From: Onchocerca volvulus
Lineage: Eukaryota > Nematoda > Chromadorea > Rhabditida > Onchocercidae
Assembly: GCA_000499405.2 (NCBI GenBank)
Contig: HG738138.1
Location: 16,283,054-16,347,053 of the forward strand
DNA length: 64,000 bases
Reading direction: 5' to 3'
This document shows positions 19,371 to 53,214 of the stretch, in pieces. A program made the translations under genes and the position numbers. The notes beneath the pieces were generated by a model that did no database searches, was not told the DNA's origin, and was given only the letters and a program-made list of their open reading frames with translations. How positions within the stretch are numbered: position 1 is the stretch's first letter; the number at the start of each line of letters is the position of its first letter.

Positions 19371-19374
19371 CTGT

Positions 19375-19740
19375 AATCTTTTGATATGCATCATATCAAA
19401 TCGTTTCCTTATCGTTATTACTTGGTGATAAAACATGAAGAATGATAATCATAAGCTAAGCTATCATTAAATCTTTTCCTCGCTATTATTAATTTTGTTT
19501 CGTTGCGACAAAGCGTTTACATCTGGTTTTTCCACCGATACAGGAAAAAACATTTTTCTAGGAATATTTTGATATGCGATATTTATAATCCTTTTCATTA
19601 TCATTTGTTGCTAAAATATCGAAGTTGATAATCACAAGCTAAGTTATCACTAAATTCTCTTCCCACCATTATGAATTTTCTTTCGTTACAATAAATCGCT
19701 CACATCTGGCTTTTTGGTCGATAGACGAAAAAAAAGGTTA
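19375..19740. repeat. Diverged tandem duplication, about 189-bp period
   Basis: The block from about 19378 (TTTTGATATGC..., GATAATCATAAGCTAAGCTATC, TTTCGTTGCGACAAAGCG, ACATCTGG) recurs from about 19567 (TTTTGATATGC..., GATAATCACAAGCTAAGTTATC, TTTCGTTACAATAAATCG, ACATCTGG). Confidence 0.8.
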
Positions 19741-22841: not shown

Positions 22842-22847
22842 TTTCAG
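22842..22847 (+). promoter_or_regulatory. Probable spliced-leader (or cis) splice acceptor of the large gene
   Basis: TTTCAG, preceded by a T-rich tract (ATTTATTTG), lies two bases before the ATG at 22850. This arrangement is typical of trans-spliced nematode mRNAs, but a cis-spliced upstream exon is also possible. Confidence 0.6.
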
Positions 22848-22849
22848 TA

Positions 22850-25800: not shown

Positions 25801-26440
25801 ATTACCGTTTAAGTCAAAAGCATCAGAAATACGAAGTGAAGTAGAAACGGATACTAATGAAAGAATCGATAAAACGATTGCTGTTGAAGATGTGGACAAA
25901 ATGGAACGAATAAATGAAAATGAAGAAGAAAAATCGGACATAAAACTTGAAAGAGGTGATGATGGTAAAGAATCAGAATCCCGAATTGTAAATGAAATAA
26001 TAAGCGCAGAGATACAAACTGGAGGAAAAATCATATTAGCAGCGGGATCAGGTTTTGGACAGCAATCACAACCGGAATTAGAAACGAATGATGACAGACA
26101 TGATCAGGAATCTCACAGTAAGCATCATCAGCATCAACGAAGAGGTCAGTTTGGTGGGATGTATTCAGATGTACCGGGAGAATGTAGACATAACACTGCC
26201 GGGAAAGATAGTTCACGTGAGTATCAGCAAAATTTTTCACAAGAAAATAGCGGAATTTCTGGTAACACCGAATTACAAGGCAATCATCAGCTACAATCAA
26301 CTGAAAATCAGAATCATTCACGGAAGCAACAGCAACAAGATAATACTAACAGAGGTTACAATCAGGATTATGCCGGTCAACAAGGACATCGGAAACAAAA
26401 TAAACGAAACAAGAAATCACGTAATTGGTTTAAACAATGA
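22850..26440 (+). CDS. Large charged, probably disordered protein (1196 aa)
   Basis: A single uninterrupted frame of 1196 codons, far longer than chance allows here, starting MAEKKNGKEVEDNAQ and ending KKSRNWFKQ. The start is chosen because it follows a TTTCAG acceptor by two bases. I recognise no catalytic domain. Residues 1 to about 780 are low-complexity Lys/Glu/Ser/Asn/Gln sequence with a basic Thr/Lys/Ser-rich middle (about 620-770). About residues 787-870 form the most globular-looking part (IDLEPLIWMETLVPTYEQTW, then amphipathic helices). About 1063-1196 are Gln/His/Asn/Gly-rich, with RRGQFGGM and a basic tail, suggestive of nucleic-acid or condensate association. There is no signal peptide or membrane span. 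An AATAAA lies at 26471. Function unknown; possibly nematode-specific. Confidence 0.9.
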   Translation: MAEKKNGKEVEDNAQVHVEESFDNSKLRYIKSGNGILEADDAINSQILTLEDQQQSKKDLLRSQKVLKKEPINIATQSGIPSTNLVEATSMPIDSILGNRNTFQQQNNFHTKQPLITPNSETSYETEAQQILEQKFIQPFIEFENITTEIIKDQVVDAFGLSQVIDDLQDQQEMNDEIVDISESLRNFRQKSPVEKQADFMTLNDDESLSKNEAGITDDTVHKNLGDWGSGHEFEKCESTHNVFSEEKTKHQNLVQQLVPKIAGNVIPENEQDFKINAIFTGLQSIDGELFEVINGLSNVVDDSEREIHLLKMDYQKLEETEIPNETLHPISEINEESQEVPLAAGFSETVFAEEFNETEIHPRTEYSISGIMVEKEKIKADAIHLTMIAGAQSITEEVSLEQDQFETTSIGEKCFKNMDFSESEKGFTVKKDEISRIKELTKSTVSKQDPENTSQGILRGAELENESVSSDNEVRSEQFLVDLKSTKVAENSENVNKIHGEYRELLESKKFREQALYEKQQENAISVDIGKNIISPIKLLEEKKKSSEAHENKAISKDDKKSDSVSTTSDQKHEMDRQENDENIKVDNADKLIVKSLKFVNMRKDKKFENNKRNKLFLQKELKNVSKDASSTVPPKSTVKRTTKTLSTTAAKIVSKSKDAKKSNQMMVDQKSTTKSFVLLPLISGKTAILKEKNVEEVGLKHTKNVTNSRNVQSLKQNTTPTKTSTVSLKLTQKKPQESRNFAKIKSESNNDSKNIPKDIIRDNQKTEKDTENNEKELAKKDKKIGIIDLEPLIWMETLVPTYEQTWKIYESTNQIIDKTDILFEKMTEKKLEIDGKIENLEINSPKLIWEIKKISEFMEAEVTKSLTLSNRGEINIPECYTSSNKDKEFLSLIDFSNIRKEQQGKISVEEEISMEDSNGKRKMEISRLIPSKSFEVIELSLKVESEISLEQKILDIIKRQDIGSDTSKDSGNSHENIEEDKVLPFKSKASEIRSEVETDTNERIDKTIAVEDVDKMERINENEEEKSDIKLERGDDGKESESRIVNEIISAEIQTGGKIILAAGSGFGQQSQPELETNDDRHDQESHSKHHQHQRRGQFGGMYSDVPGECRHNTAGKDSSREYQQNFSQENSGISGNTELQGNHQLQSTENQNHSRKQQQQDNTNRGYNQDYAGQQGHRKQNKRNKKSRNWFKQ

Positions 26441-33654: not shown

Positions 33655-33713
33655 CGCACTGTGACATTCCTACCGGTAGGAGGAGCGTCGTCGTCGTGCG
33701 GTAGTCCATCCCA

Positions 33714-33834
33714 CATGCACCAATACATGCAAGTTGCAGTCATTGGCACTACGACTGCTTCTGTTAAGCTTCTCGGATCATTCCGCAGAAGGCTATCCGT
33801 GCGGATTCGTCATCTCCCCCCGGTGATACGGTAA
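33714..33834 (+). other. GC-rich open segment upstream of gene A
   Basis: A GC-rich patch is open on the + strand. It includes MHQYMQVAVIGTTTASVKLL and an Arg-rich part, and stops at 33834, with a GTAACT donor-like site at 33831. It may be a 5' exon, an upstream ORF or a promoter island for the BH3 gene. Its phase does not fit the TTTCAG acceptor at 34121. Confidence 0.3.
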
Positions 33835-34111
33835 CTAATCTATCTCTTATCATTGAAATTCTTCTGCAAGCAGTGAACCCTCCTAGACGCAGTAATTTCT
33901 TGCAAATTCATCACCCATTGAATTGGAACAGCATATTGCGATAGGCACTGAATGGACGTTTGATCAAACGAATGAGAATCTCACCAAATCAGAATCTTTC
34001 GTTTAGATGCTGCGAATAACTAACTGGGCAGAAAAGTGCTATTCATAAACTATCAAATACGTGCATTCTTTCCGATGATTTCCATTAAAGCAACTTGAAT
34101 TTACGAATAAA

Positions 34112-34859
34112 ATGGCGAGATTTCAGATGTTATGCACAGCTCTATTCTCCGACAGATATTCCTCATCGCTAGGATATATTCCGTGTTGGACAACGATTCT
34201 TTCAAGCTTCATCGAATCAGCAGCGACGGATACTGCACGAATCGTACCGATCGGCAATCACATCTCCGTATTCTTCCCCGCATCGGAAACCGAACGAAAG
34301 GCTAAATTTATGGATGCCATCATGCAAACATCGCCTGGTTTGTCATTTTCTTGAAGGATTTATATCAGAAAAGGTGCAAATGCTCGTTTCCAAGAATCTC
34401 GCCTTTATTTGCACAATGTGAATCGAATTTCAGAAATGCAACTAAGTACGTCAATGATAGCTCGTCAATTGCGTGATATGGCTGACAGATTCGAGTACCA
34501 TTACATGGAGGAAGAACAACGTTCCAAATGTACACCTGTGCCATTATCGTCGCAGTCACAGGTCAGAGTTCGTTACATAACCTTTCGTGGAACTATCCCA
34601 TACAGCTAAAATGTGACTCACATAAATTAAATAAATCCTTCATATTAGATTTTATGCAAATAAAGAAAATGGCATGCACTGTCGTACAGCCCCAATCACT
34701 CGTAAAGGTTTAAAGTTACAATTATTGCGCAAATCATCAAAAATATGCTGATGACGCATCTTTCTGAGCATCGCACAGTGACATACTGCCTGGAAATTTC
34801 TAAATCTTTCAAATTTTTCTGAACAGATCATTAAACATTTGCAAATGGCCAAGAGATAA
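34112..34859 (+). CDS. BH3-only apoptosis activator, EGL-1-like (gene A)
   Basis: Model: exons 34112..34337, 34434..34561 and 34827..34859, 128 residues; donors GTTTGT and GTCAGA, acceptors AATTTCAG and TTTTTCTGAACAG. The BH3 motif lies at residues 84-99, IARQLRDMADRFEYHY. The hydrophobic positions I84, L88, M91 and F95, small A92 and invariant D93 all fit the BIM-type BH3 helix (known BIM: IAQELRRIGDEFNAYY). No other BCL-2 homology region or membrane tail is seen, so it is a BH3-only protein, expected to bind the CED-9/BCL-2 groove and release CED-4. A TTTCAG directly before Met6 (34127) could be a spliced-leader site, giving 123 residues. Without the second splice, exon 2 reads on to a stop at 34609. 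I prefer the three-exon form because paralogue B has the same structure. AATAAA motifs follow at 34866. Confidence 0.82.
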
Positions 34860-34865
34860 AATTAA

Positions 34866-34875
34866 AATAAATAAA
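34866..34875 (+). terminator. Polyadenylation signals of gene A
   Basis: Two overlapping AATAAA motifs, 7 and 11 bp after the stop codon of the three-exon model. They are duplicated in the right arm at 52012-52021 (minus strand). Confidence 0.6.
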
Positions 34876-35859
34876 AAAATTCAATTCGGAATTTGCCAGC
34901 CTTGTACCATCGGAGCTTTTATCCAACATTTCAACGTTTCGATAATTGATCGATCAGTCGTTAAATACGAGAAACAAAATTTGCTATTAATTTTACTCAA
35001 TAACACGCGCATTTAATGTAATTAATTTTAGTTGCGAAGTTTATCGCTCCCAGTTTTCATCGCATTCACTGCGAAAAATTTTGTCAACGCTTTGCTGAAG
35101 CGAATATTCGAACGATTTTATGTGAGGAAAAAGTGAATTGTATGCTTAATCTATCCCTATTTGCGTTTGTGTTAATTGTAATAAATAACTATTGGCCATC
35201 ATATCAGTGGTAATTATTTCACAAATAATTAGTGATTCTGACTTATCTGACAGTGTCATCCAAATAGTTTTCTTTTATAACTCCAGTGTGCTTGATATTA
35301 CATTCAGAAAACTTAATTTTAACTATTGACTGCATAATAAGGATTAGATTCAGGCATTTCACACTGATAAATGATTAGTAAGCGATTTATGACTGGATTA
35401 GCATGCATTTGTGTAATATAGGTTGATAAGGCCACTCAATATCACACATTGATTATCGAATATAATTCTAATCACTAATCAATTTTTGTGTATTAATTGG
35501 TCTATGCGATTTTATCAATCATTAAATGGAAAAAACATTTCGAAATTTTGCTGAACAAAGTTGTCGCTGTGAATTTGTGGTAAATGAAACTTACATATTA
35601 TAACTTTGCTATATTTTGTAGAAATAATTGATTATTTGATAAAATCGTTTCCAAGAAATTCCTTCCAACCTTTTATGGTAAATTCCAATTTTATTATAAA
35701 AAGAGATTTAATTAAGAAAGTATTTCAAGATTTTGAGAGAATGGACAGAACATAAATCAGTTTACACACTTTAATTTGTTTCCGAATTTTGCTGAATATA
35801 AAAACAGAGGCGCGTAAATAGTGGTAACGCGGAGATTACGGTATCAATAGCCGAAAGAT

Positions 35860-36042
35860 TCACTGTGCGGTTGGTGGCTCTATAAATGACGTAATATGGA
35901 GTGACACCTGGTCATTCAACTTTGGCACTTTAATTAATTCAACTGTGAAGAATTCAATAATCTTGAGCCGAAAGCATTTTTTACCACCATTTACAAGTAC
36001 CCAAAAAGTGCTTCCGCGTAATGACCACTGTTTAAAGTTCAC
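35860..36042 (-). other. Exon-like open segment in the left arm, unknown
   Basis: After a TTTAAACAG acceptor (minus strand) a frame reads WSLRGSTFWVLVNGGKKC and continues to PPTAQ and TGA. The codons look less AT-driven than the surroundings. I recognise no family and find no partner exon. An identical copy is at 50845-51027 (+). It could be a coding exon or a conserved control element. Confidence 0.25.
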
Positions 36043-36592
36043 ATTTATCCCAATGAAAGAACTAATTCCATCGAACTAATTGTTGCGTGATGTGGTGATC
36101 TTCACAAGAAGATGAAAGAGAGGGCTTAAGCCAAAAATGGAATTGGAATTTCTGGATATGCAAAATATTGTAAAATATCTTTTGCAAATCTATTAAGTAT
36201 TTTGTTCCTATTAAATCTAATCTATATTACGTTAATGACTTACCTGATCTTTTATATTTCAATCAAAATAGCGATAAGATTAGGTAAAACATATGGCATT
36301 TGTTTAAGTACTTCTATTCAAATGATTAATGGTAGATTTTTTGCGCTAAATCGTGGACATATGTAAACTAAGATGACAGTGGACAATGACCTTGAGTCCG
36401 GTCAGTTATCCAGGAAGAACTTCTTCAACCTGTGTTGTTGTTGCTGTCTCGCCTGAATTCACACCTGCGTAAACGTTCACCAAAAAATGATGGATGAGCA
36501 ATTATGAGAGATGCATTCACATTTGCTTACTCATATCGAATTACATATTATTGAGCAAGATTAGCAACTCACACTTATAAATAAGCTTGTCT

Positions 36593-39500
36593 ATAACAAA
36601 TTAACTAATTAACTATGCATCTTATTTATCTCAACGATGATCAGTTTGTATTAAACATTTACAAAGAAATGAAGAGTCAGAACTCTGTTTGCATGTCCGT
36701 TTTTACCATCAAATCTTCATTGATTTTTTTCCCATAAGTTAAATAATCAAGTCCAAAATGCAAAAAAATATATCACAGTAATGATTATTTCATAATTTTT
36801 TAAAATAATTATTAATCATTCCAAAAAAAAAGGGTCAAAGAAAATCTGTCACAGTAGGAATCGTCAAAGTATTGTGAAATTCAAACCCTCACTAATGAAT
36901 ATGAATTTAATATTTCAGCGATCAGTCTAACAATTTGACGAGTGGAAATTTCTCTTTTTCTCTTTCTCTTTCACTCGATAATTTATTTGTCACTATTATA
37001 GAATAATTATTGATTTTATAAAATTTACTGAATTATTTGCCTTCCAGTTGATCCTATCCTTGTTAGTTTTGCTATTATTGTCATTTCAATTTGTATATTT
37101 CACAGTCGAAACTACAATTTAGGTTATAGGCCATTATTCGCTTCATAACTCTCATTCAGTCATTTTAAATGGAAATTAGAATGAATAGAATCTGAATTAA
37201 AAATTTATCAAGTGAAGAAGAGTCATCAGTTTAAATGAGCTGTATTTCTTTATTTATCCTGAATTGTTTCTCTAATTATAATATCCTTCATTCTTTTCTT
37301 CGCATTCGATAATTTTGGTATTAACTTTTAAAGTTATATTATCGAAATCTTCAGAACCCTCTTTTATTTTATAAAGTTGAACTATATAAATGAAATCGAA
37401 AGAGAAATTACAGTATTTCGTTGATATGAATTAGTTTCGAGCTGTAATATTTTTTTCTTTTTTTTTAATAATCATCAATCATTCTAAGAAAAAGGGTCAA
37501 AAAAATTGTCATTACTGCGATTCCCGAGAGTATTATGAAATTCGTACGCATCATTTAATGACCAAGTTTTATCATAGAAAAAATTTCGACAATCGGTAAA
37601 ATAATTTAACAAATGAAAAATCTTTCTTTTGCCCTTTCTCCTTCACTACCTGACAATTTGTTCATCTTGCAGAAAATGAATAATTACTAGCTTCCATTTC
37701 GTAATAAACAACAGTGAATGATTACCTGACTTTTACCACGAGATTTTATCCGAAAAAATTACCTGACAGTTTTGCTATTGTTGTTGTTGTTGTTATTGCT
37801 GTCATTTCGATCAATGTCTTTCATAATTGGATCGTACCTATTTAGGAAATAGGCCTATTATTCGCTTTATAATTCTCATTCAAGCATTTTAAATGGAAAC
37901 CTTAGAATGAATAGAATTTAAATGCAGCAAAGCATTGCAAAATGTCAACATTCATCCTACTACAAATTAGAACGATCTGTCAAATTCATAATCCAAAATA
38001 TTCCAAAAAATAATATTCATCGAAACTTCAATTGTTGACGACAGTAAAACTAATCCTTTAGTTTAAAAAAGGATAAACTTTAAATGGTGAATTAAAATTA
38101 ATTCATTTAATCATTTAAATTAATCCCTCAATACTTTCCTCAATTCTAATTCCTATTTTGTCATTTTTGCATATATCGCATTTGTCAGACATCTAAATTA
38201 ATGCATTTTTCAATGATTATCGTAAAAATTATTCACTGTTTGTCCTATTTGGTTGTTTGGAAGAGAATGAAATTTTGAACTAAATTAAATCAAATGAGTT
38301 TGCACATAGAAAAAAAAAAGAACTTCACTTAAAATCGTCATAGTAAACTGATTGAGATCAAAAAAAAGAAAAAAAAAAAAGAGAAAAACGGTTATTTATT
38401 TTAATGTGCGCCGCGAAAGTCGCCAACTTCTTTTTCAATTGGCAATCATCACTTCACACTATTCTTTGTGTCCATAATTTTCAACTTTTTTTCGTGATAT
38501 GTTACAACGAACAAAAACGATCATTAATGATCGATCCTCTTCATTTTATCTATATAATCATCCGAGTATACCGCATAGACACACACACTTATCAATAACT
38601 ATTCACTCGGGTATGAACAACTTCTTTTGTTAATTGTTATTTAAGAAATTAATTTTTTATAACACAAATATGAAATATTCGGTAATAAAAGAAAAACTGA
38701 AATGTCATCAGGTTTATTTCATTTTATTTTTAAACTTACAATGCATTAATTATAAATTTAATTGAATAGTCTTCAAGCAGCTGAAATTGTACGTATATTA
38801 TCGGTTGCGGTAAATACGGAGAGATTTGAATTTACAAGTACAAAAGAATATTTATGTAAATATAGTGAGTAGATGTAATGAATGAAAATTGTTATTGATT
38901 GGTAGATACGAATAGAACTATGACAACGTTAATTTTCTTTAAAATACTTTAATTCTTTTAGAAGCTTAAAAGTTATAGGAAAGCCTGAAAAAAAATGTAA
39001 ATATATTTATTCAAGAAAAGCAAAATTAGTTTGTATAATCCGATCAAATTTTGACTTAACCAATTCTCGAACATTTCATCTTTTCCATCTCTGACCTCTT
39101 CAAAATTGTCCCGTCTAACTTAAAAGATATTTTATCATATAAATATTATTCATTCTATAGTCCATAATCGGAACATCCATGTAAGATTAAGAGTAAGGAT
39201 AATTTAATTGATATACTGATTTGTTGCTGATCAAATTTCAATTAATTATGAGGTAATTCCATTAAAGACAAGAAGAAGTAGAGGCTTGAAGATTTCATAA
39301 ATAATCGTTAAACAAAATTCGAAAAGAGGATACAAAATATTAAAATTTGCAGATAACTCGGGAAAGTAAGGATATCCAATAATTAACACCTCTTTTAATA
39401 TTTGCATAATTAATAAAAATTTGAATAGAAGAATGATCTCTTCTGTAGTGTGCTATTCTTGTGAAAATATTGTTGTGGTAAATTGTTGAATTATTAAAGT

Positions 39501-42500
39501 TCATTTATTTATTATCTTCTTTTGTATCTGATTTTAAAGTAATCCGAGAAGTTAATGTTCTTAAAAAACGAAATGAATGCTAAAAGTTGAAAATTGAAAA
39601 AATGATTTAAATCAAATTGCTGAATAATTGAACCATTAAAAAAATTGAGACTTTTTGTCTTCCAATTTACAAAATAAAATAATTGGTACTTCCGAAAAGT
39701 ACCTTGTCCTAAATAAACATCCAATAATTCCTAATAATAGAGATTATTTTTTTTTTGATTCAATACTGATCATTGAAATTTATTCAAAGAATTCTGTATT
39801 TCTGAAATGGAAAGATTTACCGACTTTTGGTGAATTCTCGCTCCATAAAGTCACAAAAACGAAAACGGAATTTTGTGCCTCATGCTTATTAACTTCATTC
39901 TAACATCTGCTATAGTTATTTATTATGAGTAAAATAAAAGTAAGCTTTGAAGTAATCCGATGAAAGGAAGAATAATTTGAAATGCATTGTTCTAAAGAAT
40001 AATTGACCTATGTCTATGTCTCATATACTTTACTTTTAAACAATGAAGTATTCATTGTTTAGAAGAGAGGATCAATAACTGTTAATAAAACCAAACAATT
40101 ATATTCCACAAAGCATAAATTGAATTGTTTTTCTTTTCGTCGCATAAATTACGATCTTTCTTCGATCAGATATCTCTCAAATCGATATTGCTACTAAAAT
40201 GAACGAACAAATACGCCAAGCTTATAGTATTATTTAACTAGCAATTAATGCAATTACTAACTGTTGCTACTAATAATGTTCATCAAATATGGTTGGTTAG
40301 AGAATGGAGATTGCTATTAAGCATATGTTCGAATAAATTTGATCTACTCATTCATAAGTGTCTAAATAAAGAAAGGAAACAGCTTGAGCTAAATAGGATC
40401 ATTTTACCTAAGTAGGAGCAAATGGTATTTAAGTGAATGGCAGTAAGCTTCTTCGATCAATAAAATCAACTAAGCGTCTTAAATGAAATATTCTTACTAT
40501 TAATTAAATTATGATCATATTATAAAAACGGTAATTTCCCGCATATTTTTTATTCGTTATTGTACTTGCATATAATTTTCTGTTAAGTCAAAGCACAACA
40601 GTTATTTCCTGTACCGGCTGAATAAGTTATTTCAATTCTAGTTATGATTTCCTTATTAAACTTGAAATCCCAAAAATTTTGAAAATGGATCATTTATTTT
40701 GAAACGAAAATTACATTATCTGAAAAAAAAATTAGTCTACGGGCATTTTCCATAATTCTTCTAAAAAAATATGCTATGAAACGGAAAAAAAAAACGAATC
40801 AATTTCTTTGTTAAATTATAGATATGTTGTATTACGGCTTTAATTACTGTAAAACATCAGGATAGCATGGAGTTATCTTTTCTATCTGTAACCTTTATTA
40901 CTATATTTACGCAATTTCACTTTCTTAAATTTTATTGGAAGGCAGGCAATCAATTTTTTCCCTATTAAAATACGTTTCTTTGTGTGTCTTTGAAAATAAC
41001 CAAAATTGGTTGCTACCATTCATATAGCAAATTATCAATATTCAGTTGTCACAAACTGTCATCACAAGCCATCCGTCCAATTGATGCCATTTGTTCATTC
41101 ATTCATCAGTGAATTTGTCTGTTGCCAAACCATGTCCGGGTATGGATGAAATTGCTTTATTTGTTTATTCTTTTGGAATAGAAAATAAGATAGATGAATC
41201 ATTCGCTACCGTGACAAAACTCAAATTTAGTCTTTAAAATAGCGATCAAGCAATGTGTCCATTTCCTTCTACGCTGCGAAATATCCATAATTGAAATGAA
41301 GAGGTTAAAGAATGTCATTTATTCAAAATTTAAGATAAGGGAGGAAAAAAATATGAAGACGCAACAAGATTTATCCTTGTTACTAATGCATCGATGACAT
41401 CACTCATAGCATCAAAACAATGGATTCATACAATCCATATTATTAAAATTACAATTATAACCTATTGACACGATGCATTCTTCCATTTCTCAAGCACCGG
41501 ACATTACCATTATTGTCACAAAAAAATGTGTCAAACTCATAAAAATAACAAACAAACCAACAAACAAATGACAGAAAAACATACAGAAAGGTAAATGGAA
41601 GCATGATAAATGGATGGGCTAACAAATAAATGATGGACGAAGAAACATATGCTCCATGGAATACGAAAAAATCTCTATGTTTTTTTATTAGAAAAAGTAA
41701 GTATCCTTTATTTTGAATGAAAATTTTCAGTGGAATATCAAAAATGCTAATCTTCGTAGGGGAGTTAAAATAGCAGATAACGCAAGCAAAGGAAGCACCT
41801 GAAGAATACAGGCACCCGTGGTCAGATTAATAGATATATAAAACAGTGCAGTAAATGAAAAAACAAAATTGAGTAAGCGTATCCGAAAATACTATATCAT
41901 ATCATTACAATTCAATCAATTGGAATCATTATAGGAATAATAGAGAGCTATAGTCAAGTCGGATAATAAAAAAAACAAACAAACAAACAATTACAGTGGT
42001 CAAAAAAATTACAATGATGAAGATAAAATTTTTCAATCGTTTAAATCACTAACATTTGAAATTTTAACCCAGAAGTATAGAAATTTTTTACTTTGACAGA
42101 GGCGAAAAATTCTCAAGGCATAAAAATTTCGAAAAATACTTGAAAATTATTCTAAGTTTATTTCACTTGGTTAAAAATCTCGTGAAACAACAATGAGTCA
42201 ACCAAGAGGCCTCGTTCTTTTTAAATGTTCGAAAGTAAAAGAAACTACATCATGCATTTGCTTCTTAAGCAAAAGCAATTGAATAAAATAATCCTCAAAC
42301 ATTAATGTCTGATAAAGCAAACATAAGATTCGCAGTAAGTAGCTCATTCTTATCAGAGCAAAGATTGACGAAGATACACAAATAATTAGAACAAATGTAA
42401 AAATTTGCTAACAAGTTGAGAAAACACCATTCTGATAATAAGAAAATTACGGTAAAATAGGAACTTTGCTTTGCTGGAATAATTTTCAAAATCCATTTCA

Positions 42501-42509
42501 TATGATCAA
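36593..42509. other. Loop of the inverted structure, left part, no firm gene
   Basis: AT-rich. It contains a pair of diverged direct repeats (36804-37195 and 37466-37919). Frames at 38404-38598, 39512-39724, 39655-39903 and 42295-42501 lack splice or start support. Confidence 0.5.
36804..37919. repeat. Diverged direct repeat, about 400-450-bp copies
   Basis: Copy 1 (36804-37195) and copy 2 (37466-37919) share blocks in the same order: AATCATTC, AGGGTCAAA, GTATT(G/A)TGAAATTC, AGTTTTGCTATT, TTGTC/CTGTC plus ATTTC, GGCC(A/T)ATTATTCGCTT, CTCATTCA, CATTTTAAATGGAAA and AGAATGAATAGAAT. Confidence 0.75.
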
Positions 42510-43350
42510 TTAAACACTACCAGTCAACCTTACGATATCGGTAATGTATTTAATGATGCTGGAAAACTGTAATAAAAGTTCAACAGATTAATTCGACCAT
42601 AATATTCCTTGTTTAGTGGCAATCATTTAAATAAATATTTCAATCCTTCATAATGTAGAGAAAACAAAAATTTTTTATATTTGCTGAGTATATAGAGTAC
42701 CGATATTTAAAATGAGATTCACTATATCAAACTATATAATGATTAACAATTTTTATCGGCTACTATAGTGAATCCTTCTTATTTTCAATTCAAAAACAAC
42801 TTACATGCGAAGAACTACTTTTATCTCGATGTGACTGGATGGTAATGCAAGCTTTCTGAAATTCAATTTCGAATTGATCCGCAAAATATCGGAGCTGTTT
42901 AGCAATTAGGATGCTCAATTCTTCTCGTTCTCCTAAAAAATACAAAAATAAGTGTTAAAAAAAACAGGCAGCAAAAGAAAGATCTGATTGAAAAAACGGT
43001 TTATGCTCCAGCAGATAAATGAAAAATTGGCTGTTGTAAAATGATATAAGAAAAAGGAAAGCAAAACCATTACACTAACTTTCAGAATAGATATATGTGC
43101 TTATCCCAACCATCTTCTACAGTTGATTAATTGATTATAAAGGATATTTAAAATATAAATAAATAAAAAACAATTTATATCTGCAGATTAAAAAAAATCA
43201 AATAAGACTCGCAATACCTTTGCAATTCTCTTCATCCAGCTCGTTGATGATTTTCCTAGATTTAATTTCATCACTTTCAAAATTTATACCGAAAAACATA
43301 TTTCTTCGAATAACCGATTCATTTTCTTCCATCCAATTCCCTTGCACCAT
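42510..43350 (-). CDS. BH3-only apoptosis activator, EGL-1-like paralogue (gene B)
   Basis: Exons 43362..43218 (ATG at 43350), 42932..42805 and 42566..42510 encode 105 residues. Splice signals are ATTTTAG, AAG-GTATTG, TATTTTTTAG, CAT-GTAAGT and TTTATTACAG. Phases agree throughout (1, then 0). The BH3 is at residues 54-69, IAKQLRYFADQFEIEF: I54, L58, F61, A62, D63 and F65 fill the canonical positions. It shares I-A-x-Q-L-R-x-x-A-D-x-F-E with gene A. The preceding intron has the same phase, the BH3 exon has the same length (128 nt), and both last exons contain IIK, so A and B are paralogues. The rest is divergent. A possible extra 5' exon (43746..43630, ATG right after TTCCAG, GC-type donor CAG-GCAAGT) joins in phase and would give 148 residues, but another frame there is also open. 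Expected role: trigger of apoptosis through CED-9. Confidence 0.82.
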
Positions 43351-43565
43351 TCTTATACAACCCTAAAATGTAAATCTAACGAGTGGAACTCATTTGACGA
43401 AATATCGTTATTACAGTAAAAGTGTAACCTCCATCCTCACTAAGGGTACTGCAGAATAGTTGAAATCGATCAAGCAAATAAGATCATGCTGAATGTAACT
43501 CGAACATAATCTGTTATCTTTTCATTTTTGTTTTTAAATAAAATGAAGGCATAGGAAAAAAAGAG

Positions 43566-43784
43566 CTATTTATCGAGTTCCTTTGCAAGAATCAGGATGA
43601 ACCGCAAATGAAATGACCCAAAAACTTGCCTGAATGCAGCATTCGATTTGGTCACCGAGCGATGTAATAGTTTCATATGAGTATGTTGGTAAGACAAGCG
43701 AATAACCCAAATAAGCACAGTCAATAATACCACCAATGCAATGCATCTGGAATTATTTTCTAGCATAAATAATATCATAAACAA
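43566..43784 (-). other. Ambiguous open region upstream of gene B
   Basis: Two frames compete. One (72 codons) has a hydrophobic span CIALVVLLTVLIWVIRL. The other (43746..43630) starts MHCIGGIIDCAYLGY directly after TTCCAG and ends in phase 0 at a GC donor, compatible with gene B. I cannot decide between them. Confidence 0.3.
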
Positions 43785-44090
43785 GAAATATTTGAGAAGA
43801 AAATATGCATGCGTAGGGATAAGATAAACTTTTATCTAAAATATCAAAATATTCTATATGTTACATTCTAAATTTCAAACAAAAGATGAAAAATATAGAG
43901 AAATAACTCAGAGTAAACAAGGCTGTCTGCATGATTCATATATCAATTTCTCGCTTGCGTGTATTTCTTAAGATAGGATCAAGCATTTTCTTATGAACTT
44001 ATTTTTATCAGCCAATTTAGGACAAATTTTTTAAACTGAAATTTGAAGTTACCTTTAAAGCATTAATTTATTTTTACTTTTGCTTTTTAG

Positions 44091-44202
44091 AAACATTTCT
44101 CTCTTTTTTTGTATCGTATCAGCCTGTCTGCTTGCAGTAGTTGCGGTAATTTCCGTCATGAAGTTCATCATCGATTCGGATGACAAGCATGATAAAGGTT
44201 AA
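44091..44202 (+). CDS. Tentative last exon of a membrane protein
   Basis: A strong acceptor (long T-rich tract then TTTTTAG at 44085-44090) opens a frame that reads a single hydrophobic helix, ISLFFCIVSACLLAVVAVIS, followed by a short tail, MKFIIDSDDKHDKG, and TAA. This pattern suits a C-terminal membrane anchor. The upstream exons were not found. It lies divergently from gene B, about 0.7 kb away. Confidence 0.35.
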
Positions 44203-44882
44203 AGCGTTGCAAGACAGTTTGTGAATTCATTTACCAGAACAAAAAAACATTTAATAATGTATAGATCTAAGTGAACTACAATATGTCTATCCTCAAGAAG
44301 CGGAAGTTTTTCTTAAACATTTTAATCCATCAAAAAATCTATATCTGCGTGTTACTTACTTGCATGCGTATGTGTGAGCACGTTTCAGTACATGTTTTAT
44401 GATATATTTGTTAAGTATAAGATACACAACGCATTACAAATAAATGTATTTGTGAATGTATTTATGCGTATATTTGTTGTGTGAACGGTATTTTTGTTAA
44501 GGTTCAAATAATTCCTACCAAACGAATATTATGGTCGTTATCACAGCTATAAATCTGTCAATTATGAGCCACATTTTCATGGCTACCAGCTGTTAGCATT
44601 TACCACATAACAAAAAAGATAAGAGTTAAAAAGAATTTTGAAATGTAATTATGGGAATCATTTTCGATTCTTTCTCTATACCAACCGTTTCTCTTCCTCA
44701 GCTAATGACATTAATGCTCATAAATGACAACTCAAAAATAATGCTTTGGGAGATTATTATAAAACACAGAATAAAAAAACCAAGTATGACGTTTTTGCTA
44801 TAATAGCGTAAAGCAGTGTAATATGGTATTAATTTTTTTGTAATATAGTTTGATATAGCACAAAATACAAGATATGACACAA

Positions 44883-44927
44883 AATATTGCAGTTTCAAAC
44901 AATCATATTGTTTGATACTGCAATATT
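44883..44927. repeat. Near-perfect palindrome, 21-bp arms
   Basis: AATATTGCAGTTTCAAACAAT is followed, after only three bases (CAT), by ATTGTTTGATACTGCAATATT. The arms differ at a single position, so the DNA could extrude a cruciform or its RNA a tight hairpin. Confidence 0.9.
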
Positions 44928-45227
44928 ACAGGATAGAATAGAATATTAAATTATTTAAATATTTCTTATTTTTCTTACTATTTCTAAGAAATTCCTTATT
45001 AACTTAATTCTCATTAATTTTTGATAAAAAAGTTTTATCAATATACTAAAAATTTCTCATTAATTTAATTTTTATCATTTTCATTTCCGTTTTTAACGCG
45101 AAATTTAATAATTTCGAAGATTTCAATTCTAAATAATCATCACTGGCATTATTCATAAATACTTTTTATATTTTGCAAGACTTCCAAATCTCCCTCGCAA
45201 ACATTAATATTCAGAAATTAATTTCCA

Positions 45228-45560
45228 CAAAACAAGAGATCCGGATTGAACGACCCCAAAGACTAATTCACTCGTACAAACACCACGCAAATCGACGAAG
45301 TCAGCAAAAGAAGCAGGCGAGAATGACGGTGGCACGTTTTTTCGCGCAATTTCACGCTCGTATAGATAGTGTAGTGTGAACTCTGCCACGCTATGCAAAC
45401 TGCCCGTCCCGCTCTTGAAGGAAAAAAACTCGGATCCTTAATTATGATATTTTATTACTGCGATGAAATTGTTCGCTATCGACTGATGTTATTGAGGAAC
45501 GTCGGTTTCTACCACTCCCACAAACGCTATTTATTGAGCATTAAATTGTTCTATCTTTCT
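45228..45560. promoter_or_regulatory. CpG- and GC-richer island in the loop
   Basis: A 300-bp patch is much richer in CG dinucleotides than its surroundings (GATCCGG, ACGACC, GACGAAG, GGCGAG, TTTTTTCGCGCAATTTC, GTCGG). Both strands have short open frames (45173-45379 +, 45204-45398 -), but no splice pattern joins them. It may be a promoter or enhancer for gene B or another gene; this is inference from composition only. Confidence 0.3.
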
Positions 45561-48120
45561 TGATCGGCCAAAGTTAAAGTTCAAATCCAGGGGGAAAACA
45601 TGAGCAGCAAAACCACTTGTGTTGAATGATAGCAATCATCTCTTACTTGTATTCAGCAATGATTTTTTCTTTTTTTCACAAACTGATATTTGTTTACAAA
45701 AATAGCAGCTTAATCTCTTCCTTTTCTCTCTGTTCAACCGTTGCAAATACAAATTGTCAGGAATTTAATCTGCTATTGGCATCAAATCAGGAAATTAAAA
45801 TCGAGAAAAAGGCAAGAGTGTTCGGCTTAGTGTTAATTCTGTTTGTTTATCCTGGAATCAATTGATAATTTTTAGAAGCAAATCAAATTTCTAGCCAATT
45901 CTGAAATCTCTGATGTAACTTACTGATGTTAAAAGCTATTTGTCGCATATTTTCCTTTGACTTAATATTTTCGTTAACAAAAATGACGAATATGCTGAGT
46001 GTATTGAAAGGAATTGAAGTAATTTATCAGCAGGTTTCATTATTTAATAACCTAATATTTATATAGTTGGAACTCTCGATATTCCGATAATATTTCAAAA
46101 GAATTTGAAAAACTGTTTCCACCGAAATTGAAAGCCTTGATTGCCTCAGAAAAAGAATAAACATCAATTCTGATGCTTTAAAATCCAATGAGGGAAATCA
46201 AGCTTCTCCCATCAGTCCAATTGCAATACTCTCAGGTAATTTCCCTAATTATTGAAATAATAGGAACATAAAGTCATTCGAGTCGATCGGTCGGTATCTG
46301 AGAAAGCTCTGTCCTCTGTTGTCCTAATCCATCTGTCTACCAATTAACAATTAACTGTCTTCTCTATTCGATGGGATTTCTCCGATAAAGAATGGATTCT
46401 CTCACGCTAAATAATAACAAAAATAGCGGCTTTTCGATTGATTACTTGATTTACCTGAGGTAAAAGCTAATCATTCCATATGTAATTTTTGGTTCACGTA
46501 ATTTGAGCTGCTTCTAAAATTACGAAAAATCATTAGCTGAAATAATCAATTATCTTTTACTTTTGATTGCTTCAAATGACTTTCAAAAATTTAGCACCAT
46601 TATCTTACGTCAAATTTTGATAAACAGTTGTTAGCATTATGAAATATTTGACAAATAACAATTCTCTTTCACATCATTTCGCGCTAATTTCGTTCTCTCA
46701 ATTAGATATTAATGAAATTCCAATATCTCAAATAAAGTTGTCACTTTCAGATGATGTCATTTCAAACTTTTTTACTATGTGAACTTTACGACAATAATTT
46801 CTGAATTAATTCTCTTTTAGCAAAAAAGAAATAAAAATCCGTTTTATTATTCAGAAAGTCATTTGAACGGTCCGGAACAATAGTACATCAACGATACAAG
46901 CGAAACGATCAGTGGTTGAACGATGATAATAACGTCAGCGAGAGATGGCAATTAAATATTTTGAAAATGCACTAAATGGTTAACATTCGGTCATTTTAAT
47001 TGATGACAAACAAAGAAATTGTGTTTTACTAATCCACTAAAAAAACCGATGAGCGCATTCGTTAGTCATCACCATTAATGCATTAGAAAAAAAAAAATTA
47101 AATTTGCATAAAATTGCAACAATTTTTTTTTTTTGATTGGAAAAGAAAGGATTTATTTCGACAAAAAAAAGGACAAAAAGAGAAATTTAAAAAAAATTTT
47201 AGATTTTTTGTCTTGGTTTTCTTACACTGATCGTTGTTTATGAGAAAGAAAAAAAGAACAAAATGTAAATTTATAAAATTGTAAAATTTTTGCTGAAAAA
47301 AAGATTTAAATTGTGAAAAGAGTATATATTAGCATCTAATAATATTTATTGCCAAAGGATATTGATTTCTCAAATTTTCCAGTCTTTTTATCTTTTATTT
47401 TTTTTTTTTTTTTTTTTTTTTACACAATTATGATTTTGCAAGGTTTCTTTAATTAAGCCATAAAATTTATAAAATTGAATGTAATTTTTATTTTCTAATT
47501 TTTCATTTTTTCATTCTATCAAAGTGACAACAGATGTATATAATTCATTATAATGGATATTGTTTTTGTTAACTTGTAAAAACTGAAAAAAAAAATTTCA
47601 TTTTAATTTTTCGCGCTTTCACAAATGCTGTTGTACTAGAAATATTTTTTGAAGAAGTCAAATTTGTTTATTTCTCTTCAAATGCATGCTCAGTTAATAA
47701 ATTTTTATAATAGATTTTGAAATAGTTTTGATCGATGTTATAGCTTTTATTCAAAAATATCAGGTTATTTTATAGCCTATCGCAGTTATATTGAACGAAA
47801 GAGTTGTGAGTGGTACGATATAATTCGTACGTTTTTGTCGTAATTTTATTTGCTTTGAAAAAAAAAAAAAGCCATTAAAAATCACAATCAATTGAATTTG
47901 AGTGAGAAAAAATTTTGAAACTTTAATTTTTTCCTCCTTCATTACTTTTGTAAATAAAATAAGCTAGAAAAAGTGAGCTAAATGTTCGAAAATGATTCAA
48001 TTCGATTTATAGACGATTAAGTTCGGATAAAACAGTTTAATAGATGACCCGATTAAGGAATGAGCATAATTTTGAAATAATTATGCAACTTTTTTAATGA
48101 GTACTTATAATTTAAGAATT
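45561..48120. other. AT-rich loop sequence without a supported gene
   Basis: Contains a T-homopolymer at 47398-47421 and A/T-rich frames only. Confidence 0.5.
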
Positions 48121-48627
48121 CTAAGCTAACTCACTGTAACATGTTAAGACTGAGATGATTATTTTATTGGTGACACTTATGAGCCATTCTGAAATTTCTT
48201 CAAATGAGCATGTAAATTGTTGAAGGTCATCCGAGTGGAGATAGGATGAGGTTCGGGAAGTGTCAAATTGTTATAATTCGATGTAGTGGAAAGGAAAGGA
48301 CTCAATCATGCATGGTTGAATCAATTGTTTCGGTCGTACTTACGGTTTTGTGGTTGATTCTCGGACGCGACCTTATCTGATCTGCTAAATAATAAATTAT
48401 ATGAGATAGAATTCAATATCCCTTAGAATATAACACAATCTACAATTATCTATTCGATAATCGCCTTACTTCAAAAGCTTACTTTACCAACTTGGGTGTT
48501 GCAATACTGTGGCAGGTGTTGCATATAGGACAGTATGTCTCCGCAAATGAGGATTGAATTTCTTGGGATTTTGTCCGGTATAAATCCCGGAAATTTAGAA
48601 ATCTTTCCTTCTCACAAATATTTATTG
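48121..48627 (-). CDS. Tentative cysteine-rich protein, internal and last exons
   Basis: Exon 48627..48483 reads ICEKERFLNFRDLYRTKSQE, then the Cys/His cluster TYCPICNTCHSIATPKL, and ends in phase 2 at a GTAAGC donor. Exon 48384..48344 (41 nt, TTATTTAG acceptor, GTAAGTACG donor) continues in phase as RSDKVASENQPQN. A TTTCAG acceptor at 48189 would give a last exon ending at 48121. The C-x2-C-x2-C-H spacing suggests a metal site, but I do not recognise a family. Several consensus splice sites with matching phases support it; the 5' exons are unknown. Confidence 0.35.
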
Positions 48628-50294
48628 CTTTGGTTTGATTTAATTATATCTATTATATGCATTATTATTCTTACTGTAATTATGAAATTAGCATAAAACT
48701 AGATGTCTTTATCTTGGATAACTAAAGTAACTCAAACAATTATATGAGCAATTATCCGGAAGAGATCCGTATCAGATATGATAGGAATATCATTTGTCAG
48801 ATTTCACAATTCAAAAAACATTTAATTAGGTTTTATCGGATTCCATAATTCAAGAATACTTTGAAGAACAAAAAGATATGCTTTTACATTTCAGAATACT
48901 TTAAATGTATTTCAGTATATTTTGAGTATTTTAACTTTAAAATACTTCATCCGTTGTTCTCTATTTGCTTTCTGTTTTATTTCATATTACTTAATGATCT
49001 CATATTAATGCTTCACTTCAAATGAATAATAATAATATTAAATAATTTGTTTTGATTGTTGGTATAAATCATCGTTGTCCGGTTCCATTCATATAAAATA
49101 ATTTCTGAAGAGATCCTTTCCATTGTTGTTCATTGCCCTTTGTCCTATTGTCACCTTGTAAATTCAAGAGGTACCAATGGCGATACTAATTACTATCTAT
49201 CATTTCATTATGTTCCTGAATTAATTTCATTTTGAGATTTTGTTCAATTTCATTCATTTCTTCTTAATTTAATTTAGGCTTAACAAAGCGATAGTTATTA
49301 GCTAAAGGAAATCAACAAACAGCAATATTCAATTGCTTATTGAATTCTAATCAATTCTGGTATCAAAAAGCAAATTTGTTAATTCGAAAGAAAATTTACG
49401 CGTTTTCCGAAATATTATAGTATGATGGAAATTAAACTAGAAATTTGAAAATATAATGAAGTGGACAACTGAATTCATATATTCCTTGAATTATTATACC
49501 AAGGATAGAATTAAATTAGAAATTTAAAAATCTTGTGAAATGAACAGCTCTTTCATTCTGAGGTAAAAAAAAGCTTGGCTTAGGGCAAATTTCAACGGAC
49601 ATATTTGGATATATTAAAAGTATGACCAAAATGGTCTTAACGTTGCAGCAAAATCTTGAGTAATTGCAAAGTATTGCGAAGTAGCCATTGGTCATTTTCT
49701 ATTGATTACCAATGAGTACTTCGGACAGAGTTAATACAAAATAACTTTTTTTGCTACAACAGTATATTTCAATGTGTATTATTATTCATCAAAAGCGATT
49801 GTTTAACGGTTGAACACATAATGCTATTGAAAAGTGCACGCCTATGTCTTATATAAATGAAAAAAACGAATAAAAAGTTTAGTATAGAAAAAAAAAAACC
49901 GCTTGAAAAATTTATGAATATAATTAGTTGTTAGTTGTATCTCATTTTGGCCTTGAATGAAGTTTTTTATTCAGTAAATTTAACTTAATTTAATCTAGAA
50001 ATGTTCAAAATATTTTTGGATGAAATTGGACAGAACAATTTCATAGTTATTATTGTAAATATTATCCAAGGAGAAACCGATGATTAACAAATCTACGAAA
50101 GATTCTCATAATTTGATTAAACTATAAAAGGTTGATATGGAGGAAGTATTTCGAATATTTCTAAACTGCAACAATTAGACTTCAAAATTGGCTGTAAGAC
50201 TTGTAGAAAATTTTTCACAGATGAATGACTATCATATGCAAAGTCAGAGACATATTCCAAGTTTTAGAAATACTTAAAAAAGTCAATTTTTTGC
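48628..50294. other. AT-rich loop sequence, right part
   Basis: One exon-like minus-strand segment (about 49180-49055, after AATTAG) reads YRHWYLLNLQGDNRTKG and could be an upstream exon of the cysteine-rich gene, but no phase-proven link was found. Otherwise nothing. Confidence 0.4.
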
Positions 50295-50844
50295 AGACAA
50301 GCTTATTTATAAGTGTGAGTTGCTAATCTTGCTCAATAATATGTAATTCGATATGAGTAAGCAAATGTGAATGCATCTCTCATAATTGCTCATCCATCAT
50401 TTTTTGGTGAACGTTTACGCAGGTGTGAATTCAGGCGAGACAGCAACAACAACACAGGTTGAAGAAGTTCTTCCTGGATAACTGACCGGACTCAAGGTCA
50501 TTGTCCACTGTCATCTTAGTTTACATATGTCCACGATTTAGCGCAAAAAATCTACCATTAATCATTTGAATAGAAGTACTTAAACAAATGCCATATGTTT
50601 TACCTAATCTTATCGCTATTTTGATTGAAATATAAAAGATCAGGTAAGTCATTAACGTAATATAGATTAGATTTAATAGGAACAAAATACTTAATAGATT
50701 TGCAAAAGATATTTTACAATATTTTGCATATCCAGAAATTCCAATTCCATTTTTGGCTTAAGCCCTCTCTTTCATCTTCTTGTGAAGATCACCACATCAC
50801 GCAACAATTAGTTCGATGGAATTAGTTCTTTCATTGGGATAAAT

Positions 50845-51027
50845 GTGAACTTTAAACAGTGGTCATTACGCGGAAGCACTTTTTGGGTACTTGTAAATGG
50901 TGGTAAAAAATGCTTTCGGCTCAAGATTATTGAATTCTTCACAGTTGAATTAATTAAAGTGCCAAAGTTGAATGACCAGGTGTCACTCCATATTACGTCA
51001 TTTATAGAGCCACCAACCGCACAGTGA
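50845..51027 (+). other. Exon-like open segment in the right arm, unknown
   Basis: Identical to the segment at 35860-36042 in the left arm, in the opposite orientation; see that entry for its reading. The product is not recognised. Confidence 0.25.
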
Positions 51028-52027
51028 ATCTTTCGGCTATTGATACCGTAATCTCCGCGTTACCACTATTTACGCGCCTCTGTTTTTATATTCAGCAAAA
51101 TTCGGAAACAAATTAAAGTGTGTAAACTGATTTATGTTCTGTCCATTCTCTCAAAATCTTGAAATACTTTCTTAATTAAATCTCTTTTTATAATAAAATT
51201 GGAATTTACCATAAAAGGTTGGAAGGAATTTCTTGGAAACGATTTTATCAAATAATCAATTATTTCTACAAAATATAGCAAAGTTATAATATGTAAGTTT
51301 CATTTACCACAAATTCACAGCGACAACTTTGTTCAGCAAAATTTCGAAATGTTTTTTCCATTTAATGATTGATAAAATCGCATAGACCAATTAATACACA
51401 AAAATTGATTAGTGATTAGAATTATATTCGATAATCAATGTGTGATATTGAGTGGCCTTATCAACCTATATTACACAAATGCATGCTAATCCAGTCATAA
51501 ATCGCTTACTAATCATTTATCAGTGTGAAATGCCTGAATCTAATCCTTATTATGCAGTCAATAGTTAAAATTAAGTTTTCTGAATGTAATATCAAGCACA
51601 CTGGAGTTATAAAAGAAAACTATTTGGATGACACTGTCAGATAAGTCAGAATCACTAATTATTTGTGAAATAATTACCACTGATATGATGGCCAATAGTT
51701 ATTTATTACAATTAACACAAACGCAAATAGGGATAGATTAAGCATACAATTCACTTTTTCCTCACATAAAATCGTTCGAATATTCGCTTCAGCAAAGCGT
51801 TGACAAAATTTTTCGCAGTGAATGCGATGAAAACTGGGAGCGATAAACTTCGCAACTAAAATTAATTACATTAAATGCGCGTGTTATTGAGTAAAATTAA
51901 TAGCAAATTTTGTTTCTCGTATTTAACGACTGATCGATCAATTATCGAAACGTTGAAATGTTGGATAAAAGCTCCGATGGTACAAGGCTGGCAAATTCCG
52001 AATTGAATTTTTTTATTTATTTTAATT

Positions 52028-52775
52028 TTATCTCTTGGCCATTTGCAAATGTTTAATGATCTGTTCAGAAAAATTTGAAAGATTTAGAAATTTCCAGGCA
52101 GTATGTCACTGTGCGATGCTCAGAAAGATGCGTCATCAGCATATTTTTGATGATTTGCGCAATAATTGTAACTTTAAACCTTTACGAGTGATTGGGGCTG
52201 TACGACAGTGCATGCCATTTTCTTTATTTGCATAAAATCTAATATGAAGGATTTATTTAATTTATGTGAGTCACATTTTAGCTGTATGGGATAGTTCCAC
52301 GAAAGGTTATGTAACGAACTCTGACCTGTGACTGCGACGATAATGGCACAGGTGTACATTTGGAACGTTGTTCTTCCTCCATGTAATGGTACTCGAATCT
52401 GTCAGCCATATCACGCAATTGACGAGCTATCATTGACGTACTTAGTTGCATTTCTGAAATTCGATTCACATTGTGCAAATAAAGGCGAGATTCTTGGAAA
52501 CGAGCATTTGCACCTTTTCTGATATAAATCCTTCAAGAAAATGACAAACCAGGCGATGTTTGCATGATGGCATCCATAAATTTAGCCTTTCGTTCGGTTT
52601 CCGATGCGGGGAAGAATACGGAGATGTGATTGCCGATCGGTACGATTCGTGCAGTATCCGTCGCTGCTGATTCGATGAAGCTTGAAAGAATCGTTGTCCA
52701 ACACGGAATATATCCTAGCGATGAGGAATATCTGTCGGAGAATAGAGCTGTGCATAACATCTGAAATCTCGCCAT
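52028..52775 (-). CDS. BH3-only apoptosis activator, second copy (gene A')
   Basis: Exons 52775..52550, 52453..52326 and 52060..52028 mirror gene A exactly, so the predicted 128-residue protein and its BH3 (IARQLRDMADRF) are identical. All splice sites, the Met6 TTTCAG site and the polyadenylation motifs (52012-52021) are kept, so both copies look usable. The sequence upstream of the arm differs from that of gene A, so the two copies may be controlled differently: here the boundary falls at an ATGATG (53214-53209) rather than in the left copy's acceptor-bounded segment. Confidence 0.82.
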
Positions 52776-53052
52776 TTTATTCGTAAATTCAAGTTGCTTT
52801 AATGGAAATCATCGGAAAGAATGCACGTATTTGATAGTTTATGAATAGCACTTTTCTGCCCAGTTAGTTATTCGCAGCATCTAAACGAAAGATTCTGATT
52901 TGGTGAGATTCTCATTCGTTTGATCAAACGTCCATTCAGTGCCTATCGCAATATGCTGTTCCAATTCAATGGGTGATGAATTTGCAAGAAATTACTGCGT
53001 CTAGGAGGGTTCACTGCTTGCAGAAGAATTTCAATGATAAGAGATAGATTAG

Positions 53053-53214
53053 TTACCGTATCACCGGGGGGAGATGACGAATCCGCACGGATAGCCTTCT
53101 GCGGAATGATCCGAGAAGCTTAGCAGAAGCAGTCGTAGTGCCAATGACTGCAACTTGCATGTATTGGTGCATGTGGGATGGACTACCGCACGACGACGAC
53201 GCTCCTCCCATCAT
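53053..53214 (-). other. 53-codon open frame upstream of gene A'
   Basis: Starts ATGATG exactly at the arm boundary and reads MMGGASSSCGSPSHMHQYMQ, then an Arg-rich end. Most of it lies in the duplicated arm, but the two start codons come from flanking or junction sequence. It may be a 5' exon or upstream ORF of gene A'. It has Ala where the left copy has Val (53123 versus 33764). Confidence 0.3.

What the first reader, a model, noticed from the sequence alone, without database searches (positions are those of the whole stretch)
33679..53214. Cluster of three BH3-only (EGL-1-like) cell-death genes in a nematode
Three complete small genes within 19.5 kb encode BIM-type BH3 helices: two identical copies (A, A') and one paralogue (B). 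By established knowledge, C. elegans triggers apoptosis with the BH3-only proteins EGL-1 and CED-13, which are hard to find by similarity because only the BH3 is conserved. A clustered, multi-copy set would be a new arrangement of the apoptosis trigger.
Basis: partly seen in the sequence, partly recalled or inferred. Interest (0 to 1): 0.92.

Follow-up and report, generated by a model that had tools for sequence, protein, structure and literature searches.

The report
Cell-death trigger genes in parasitic worm
A stretch of a parasitic roundworm's chromosome appears to carry two kinds of small gene that switch on cell suicide, one of them in two mirror-image copies, giving a concrete candidate for how such worms start programmed cell death.

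Summary
A 2,928-base inverted repeat (5 mismatches) carries two identical copies of gene A; a related gene B lies between them. A and B each encode one BH3-type helix (IARQLRDMADRFE; IAKQLRYFADQFE), the only BH3 matches above 8 bits in the 64 kb. Splice sites ranked separately at each locus gave the same BH3 exon: 128 nt, same phases. The host genome (94.7 Mb; probably Onchocerca volvulus, inferred from scaffold sizes) encodes a CED-9 and caspases. Most likely A and B are BH3-only triggers that bind CED-9, as EGL-1 does.

Limits: motif score alone is not significant genome-wide (27 or more sites as good as A expected by chance). No transcript or second species could be examined. Orthology with EGL-1 is not shown: the block recalled to flank C. 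elegans egl-1 seems to lie 6.2 Mb away without a BH3. The perfect identity of A and A' may partly come from assembly. A 2022 survey knows BH3-only proteins in C. elegans but not other nematode branches; drug papers report filarial 'EGL-1' by immunoblot, with no gene sequence in the passages seen. New members of a known kind.

The parts
33679..36606 (+). left arm of inverted repeat (2,928 nt, 5 mismatches to right arm), carries gene A
50281..53208 (-). right arm of inverted repeat, carries gene A'
34112..34337 (+). gene A exon 1 (CDS from ATG 34112; a good acceptor at 34126/34127 directly before a second in-frame ATG is a candidate trans-splice site)
34434..34561 (+). gene A exon 2, 128 nt, BH3 helix SMIARQLRDMADRFEYH
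34827..34859 (+). gene A exon 3, IIKHLQMAKR then stop; AATAAA at 34866; its acceptor is the weakest splice site of the model
52550..52775 (-). gene A' exon 1
52326..52453 (-). gene A' exon 2 (BH3)
52028..52060 (-). gene A' exon 3
43218..43350 (-). gene B exon 1 (CDS from ATG 43350; acceptor candidate before 43362)
42805..42932 (-). gene B exon 2, 128 nt, BH3 helix ILIAKQLRYFADQFEIE
42510..42566 (-). gene B exon 3, FSSIIKYITDIVRLTGSV then stop

Best explanation
Two diverged paralogous BH3-only genes (A and B), with A present twice in mirror image. Each makes a small protein whose only recognisable part is one amphipathic BH3 helix. Inferred mechanism: when transcribed in a doomed or stressed cell, the helix fits the hydrophobic groove of the worm's CED-9 (four hydrophobic positions I-L-M/F-F, small residue A, and the invariant Asp pairing with the Arg of CED-9's BH1 'YGR'), CED-9 lets go of CED-4, and the CED-3 caspase is switched on. 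Shown here: gene structures, BH3 pattern, helix prediction, presence of a CED-9 gene and of caspase exons in the same genome. Inferred from the EGL-1/CED-9 pathway: expression, binding, killing.
For: Only three sites above 8 bits in the window, all in these genes. Independent splice ranking gives the same 128-nt exon and phases at both loci, with exon-2 acceptors 8.5 and 8.8 (98th percentile of 3,148 plus-strand AGs is 8.3) and donors 6.4 and 9.5 (95th and 98th percentiles of 2,557 plus-strand GTs are 6.1 and 7.5). A and B share 9 of 17 residues across the BH3, and 7 of those 9 use different synonymous codons. Both third exons carry IIK[HY]. All six aligned BH3 sequences (A, B, BIM, EGL-1, BMF, PUMA) share the I, L and D columns. 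AlphaFold2 makes exon 2 of A a helix over residues 5-32, mean pLDDT 97 over residues 11-20. CED-9: C. elegans CED-9 is the best PDB match of both main exons, BH1 'SYGRL' kept, Pfam Bcl-2 over cut-off, a C-terminal hydrophobic exon open. Caspase exons over cut-off.
Against: A BH3 match of A's strength is expected about 27 times per such genome in Markov DNA, and real DNA outside the window gave 3 sites above 8 bits where 1.0 was expected. A scores below all nine known BH3s in leave-one-out. Exon-2 peptides do not find BIM or EGL-1 in the PDB by phmmer at E up to 10, and no Pfam family matches. The acceptor of A's exon 3 is poor (2.9, under the 80th percentile of 3.4). A and B were both picked for BH3 likeness, so their likeness to each other is partly built in. 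No transcript data and no second species could be examined. CED-4 was not clearly found (below cut-off).
Confidence: 0.73

Rival explanations
1. A and B are small unrelated or related genes of other function that contain a BH3-like amphipathic helix by chance.
For: About 27 sites of A's score expected per genome in Markov DNA, perhaps more in real DNA; no hit to any Pfam family; A below the range of the nine known BH3s.
Against: Two different sites 8.5 kb apart, in exons of identical length and phase, with a similar third exon, and the key BH3 positions filled in both.
Confidence: 0.22
2. There is really one A gene: the second copy is an assembly duplicate, or a diverged copy overwritten with the same consensus. 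(Not exclusive of the best explanation.)
For: If the genome is the published O. volvulus one (PMC5310847, passages seen), it was started from short reads and mate pairs and improved with an optical map and manual work; all 5 arm mismatches lie within about 90 nt of unique flanking sequence, as expected if the inner part of each arm was filled from one pooled consensus.
Against: Both arms join unique, gap-free flanks with one difference inside at 33764/53123; the 1,733-nt arm stretch 34860-36592 and the 126-nt BH3 exon each match exactly these two places.
Confidence: 0.3
3. The 19.5 kb unit is a mobile element with 2.9 kb terminal inverted repeats carrying captured genes.
For: Size and long inverted ends recall giant DNA transposons (recalled comparison).
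Against: The longest closed open frame in the 13.7 kb between the arms is 123 aa; the two arm stretches searched match only here (the outer 433 nt of the arm were not searched as DNA); no matching short repeats seen by eye at the outer ends.
Confidence: 0.03

Closest known systems
C. elegans EGL-1 (BH3-only trigger; PDB 1TY4 with CED-9)
   Same: Small protein with a single BH3 helix; host has CED-9; I-x-x-x-L-x-x-[M/F]-[small]-D-x-F pattern shared.
   Different: No likeness detected outside the BH3; not beside the prenyltransferase/CBF-gene block; two paralogues, one mirror-duplicated.
C. elegans CED-13
   Same: Second C. elegans BH3-only protein (named in PMC7456325, passages seen).
   Different: Sequence not compared here.
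Human BIM and BMF BH3 domains
   Same: IA[x][x]L[x][x][I/M/F][A/G]D[x]F core; BMF core IARKLQCIADQF is especially close (BMF letters recalled; BIM confirmed).
   Different: No family relation implied; the rest of the human proteins was not compared.

Membership tests
BH3-only proteins | BH3 pattern: four hydrophobic positions, small residue, invariant Asp | tested here: met
   I, L, M/F, F with A and D in both A and B
BH3-only proteins | No other BH domain or known domain | tested here: met
   no Pfam family for either protein at E up to 10
BH3-only proteins | Motif forms an amphipathic helix | tested here: met
   helix predicted, exon 2 of A only; amphipathy read from the sequence
BH3-only proteins | Score within range of known BH3s | tested here: inconclusive
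   B above 1 of 9, A above 0 of 9 leave-one-out scores
BH3-only proteins | Transcribed and spliced as modelled | not testable with these tools
   no transcript data held
BH3-only proteins | Binds a pro-survival BCL-2 protein and kills cells | not testable with these tools
   no complex modelling or bench work available
EGL-1 orthologues | Same gene neighbourhood as C. elegans egl-1 (fntb-1 and the CEBPZ-type gene; recalled) | tested here: not met
   a prenyltransferase and a CBF-domain gene lie together at C3:22.49-22.50 Mb, 6.2 Mb away; best BH3 score in the 100 kb around them 10.1. That they are FNTB and CEBPZ is inferred from the pairing, not tested
EGL-1 orthologues | Same ancestral chromosome element (C. 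elegans V) | tested here: inconclusive
   NOC3 at C3:15.957 Mb and the prenyltransferase/CBF pair at 22.49 Mb are on the same contig; their C. elegans positions are recalled, and OM2 is a fusion of two elements (PMC7181701, passages)
EGL-1 orthologues | Sequence likeness beyond the BH3 | tested here: not met
   EGL-1 (1TY4_C) not found with the exon-2 peptides at E up to 10; exons 1 and 3 were not searched against the PDB
EGL-1/CED-9/CED-4/CED-3 pathway | CED-9 present in the genome | tested here: met
EGL-1/CED-9/CED-4/CED-3 pathway | CED-3-type caspase present | tested here: met
   four Peptidase_C14 matches at two places on C5, all over cut-off; which is CED-3 was not tested
EGL-1/CED-9/CED-4/CED-3 pathway | CED-4 present | tested here: inconclusive
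   two NB-ARC matches, both below cut-off

The most novel reading that the evidence does not exclude
In this filarial lineage the apoptosis trigger has been multiplied into a cluster in which one trigger protein is produced from two mirror-image loci that share only about 430 bp of upstream DNA, so that two different regulatory neighbourhoods drive the same killer peptide, kept identical by exchange between the arms, while the pro-survival side lost its second CED-9 copy. Such a shift of balance could underlie the worm's readiness to die when its cells or its bacterial symbionts are stressed.
Probability: 0.12. Interest if true: 0.85.

Novelty: new member of a known kind. Interest (0 to 1): 0.6.

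Why it matters
The 2022 survey PMC8998228 (12 of 15 matching passages seen) says BH3-only proteins are identified in C. elegans but not in other branches of the nematodes. The 2020 survey PMC7456325 (abstract, passages and Discussion seen) treats BCL-2 and CED-4 proteins of many nematodes and, in the parts seen, names BH3-only proteins for C. elegans only among nematodes. Against this, a drug study reports EGL-1 of the filaria Setaria cervi by immunoblot (PMC6089915, passages), and a review lists EGL-1 qPCR and immunoblots for filariae (PMC10538269, passages); the passages seen give no gene sequence. A concrete pair of candidate genes makes the trigger step of filarial cell death testable, and gives a template (128-nt exon, phases 1 and 0, I-A-[R/K]-Q-L-R-x-x-A-D-x-F-E) for finding the gene in other filariae.

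Tried and rejected
Protein database search for relatives: not available. Pfam and PDB searches with the genes: nothing relevant (the one PDB hit is an ESAT-6-like protein, E 1.1, taken as chance). Own-genome search with gene A: besides A and A' one weak match to exon 1, C2:12597033-12597161, E 0.065, 42% over 43 residues, not followed up. Bacterial and archaeal genome contigs with gene A: 29 pattern matches, 0 confirmed. Search for a BH3 near the presumed egl-1 block: none above 10.1 bits in 100 kb. Diverged homology beyond the arm ends: none found. Mobile element: no long frame, no further copies of the stretches searched. miRNA sites known for C. elegans egl-1 (seeds recalled): CCCGGTG occurs upstream of A and of A' and once more at 23695, not downstream of A, A' or B; CGATCTC does not occur; rejected as evidence. 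Rfam and tRNA: nothing. Neighbouring frames in Pfam: 0 of 10 matched at E 0.1. A genome-wide scan for further BH3 genes could not be done with enough sensitivity: a protein search with B's exon found only B, not even A.
Full report
WHAT IS THERE. The window is G000:C3:16283054-16347053 of a genome of 94,684,704 bases in 115 contigs. Contig C3 is 25,485,961 bases and C4 16,639,409. The published Onchocerca volvulus genome is 97 Mb, with four scaffolds of 16-31 Mb, the X scaffold OM2 being 25.5 Mb (PMC5310847, passages seen). The window holds one long inverted repeat, 33679-36606 and 50281-53208, 2,928 nt per arm with 13,674 nt between, and 5 mismatches. No diverged homology was found beyond the arm ends. 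The window has no runs of N.

GENES. Gene A (+): exons 34112-34337, 34434-34561, 34827-34859; 128 aa. A' is the same on the minus strand in the other arm, coding sequence identical. Gene B (-): exons 43350-43218, 42932-42805, 42566-42510; 105 aa. In both genes intron 1 is in phase 1 and intron 2 in phase 0. With a rough splice-site score (recalled nematode consensus), the best acceptor/donor pair around the BH3 frame was computed for each locus on its own: 34434/34561 for A and 42932/42805 for B, both 128 nt, both ahead of the next pair (14.9 against 12.7; 18.3 against 12.3). The other sites: A exon 1 donor 6.6, B exon 1 donor 5.0, B exon 3 acceptor 6.8, and A exon 3 acceptor only 2.9, below the 80th percentile, so the last exon of A is the least certain. 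Acceptor-like sites lie just before the starts (34127 and 43362), as trans-splicing would need; AATAAA follows the stop of A at 34866.

BH3 TEST. A score matrix from nine BH3 sequences (eight human, letters recalled, BIM checked; EGL-1 checked) was run on six frames. Three sites exceed 8 bits in the window: B 15.7, A and A' 13.5. In 200 Mb of third-order Markov DNA trained on the window, 57 sites reach 13.5 and 13 reach 15.74: by arithmetic about 0.018 per 64 kb and 27 per genome for A's level. A smaller 3 Mb run found 0. A control on real DNA, 154,909 bases of this genome outside the window, gave 3 sites above 8 bits (8.4, 9.0, 10.1) where the Markov rate predicts 1.0, so true chance rates may be higher. 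A single hit is thus weak genome-wide, and the case rests on two different hits 8.5 kb apart in exons of equal length and phase. Leave-one-out scores of the nine known motifs are 15.5-33.0, so A is a little below the known range and B at its lower edge. Across 26 aligned codons A and B agree at 11, 15 and 7 of 26 first, second and third positions; 7 of 9 shared BH3 residues use different synonymous codons, so the split is old, though this pattern is partly built in by choosing both for BH3 likeness. BLASTP of the two proteins aligns only the BH3 (9 of 17, E 3e-4 for the single comparison). AlphaFold2 (two-sequence alignment, exon 2 of A) gives a helix at residues 5-32 with mean pLDDT 97 over residues 11-20.

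PARTNERS. C4:4.451-4.454 Mb encodes a CED-9: Pfam Bcl-2 over cut-off; two main exons match C. elegans CED-9 best in the PDB (E 1.4e-4 and 6.6e-8); BH1 'SYGRL' is kept. A first exon and a C-terminal hydrophobic exon were assigned by eye. Upstream lies a second ced-9-like stretch (74.7% and 75.0% DNA identity over 79 and 52 nt) whose frames look interrupted (by eye); two BCL-2 genes close together are reported for clade III Spirurida (PMC7456325, passages). An SDHC-like frame lies further upstream (identified by eye, and its pairing with ced-9 in C. elegans is recalled). Caspase domains are present (4 matches over cut-off at 2 places on C5); NB-ARC matches are below cut-off (2 of 2), so CED-4 is undecided.

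LINEAGE. C. elegans egl-1 is recalled to lie on chromosome V near fntb-1 and the CEBPZ-type gene. Here a prenyltransferase (one of three such loci) and a CBF-domain gene (one of three) sit together at C3:22.49-22.50 Mb (prenyltransferase confirmed), 6.2 Mb from the window; that they are FNTB and CEBPZ is inferred. The 100 kb around them (ten loci, L021-L030) hold no BH3 score above 10.1. NOC3, recalled on V, is at C3:15.957 Mb. This fits a shared chromosome element but is weak evidence, and local order is not kept. I therefore call the genes EGL-1-like in expected action, not EGL-1 orthologues.

THE DUPLICATE. Identity of A and A' is complete in the coding part, and the only mismatches lie about 85 nt from the outer end and within 14 nt of the inner end. 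The arm stretch 34860-36592 matches exactly two places in the genome, and so does the BH3 exon. In a short-read assembly (12 of 30 matching passages seen) a 2.9 kb repeat can be filled from one pooled sequence, so interior differences could be hidden, and an outright artefact cannot be excluded. If real, A and A' share about 430 bp upstream and then have different neighbours.

PRIOR KNOWLEDGE. Eight paper searches bore on BH3-only genes of nematodes and one on the genome. Of the listed papers six were opened on this point, in passages or sections only (PMC7456325, PMC8998228, PMC10538269, PMC4826884, PMC6089915, PMC13303787); others, such as PMC7724845 and PMC2246300, were seen only as listings. 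PMC8998228 states that BH3-only proteins are identified in C. elegans but not in other branches of the nematodes. PMC6089915 reports EGL-1 by immunoblot in the filaria Setaria cervi and PMC10538269 builds a filarial EGL-1/CED-9/CED-4/CED-3 scheme; neither gives a gene sequence in the passages seen. The library lacks most subscription papers and preprints, so this is not proof of absence.

VERDICT. Real structure, probable BH3-only genes (0.73; 0.77 before the real-DNA control), function inferred, duplication probable but unproven. New members of a known kind, of real use to filarial biology if transcripts confirm them.

Noticed in passing
L005 5760-6320 (G000:C4 about 4449260-4449820): Second ced-9-like stretch upstream of the CED-9 gene, with frames that look interrupted; paired BCL-2 genes are reported in Spirurida, here one looks broken.
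   Followed up: partly
window 22832-26440 (+): 1,202-aa open frame, acidic/lysine-rich with a Gln/Arg/Gly-rich end; no Pfam match.
   Followed up: partly
window 33680-33830 and mirror 53057-53207: G+C 0.55 against 0.29 for the window, just inside the outer end of each arm, with open frames; could be a 5' exon or promoter of A.
   Followed up: no
window 11844-12133; 7704-8067; 19366-19733; 36796-37923: Local diverged direct repeats, 70-82% identity.
   Followed up: no
G000:C3:22492338-22500584: CBF-domain and prenyltransferase genes side by side, as recalled for the C. elegans egl-1 neighbourhood, on the same contig as the cluster.
   Followed up: partly
G000:C2:12597033-12597161 (L011): Weak match to exon 1 of gene A (E 0.065, 42% over 43 residues, open frame of 50 aa).
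   Followed up: no
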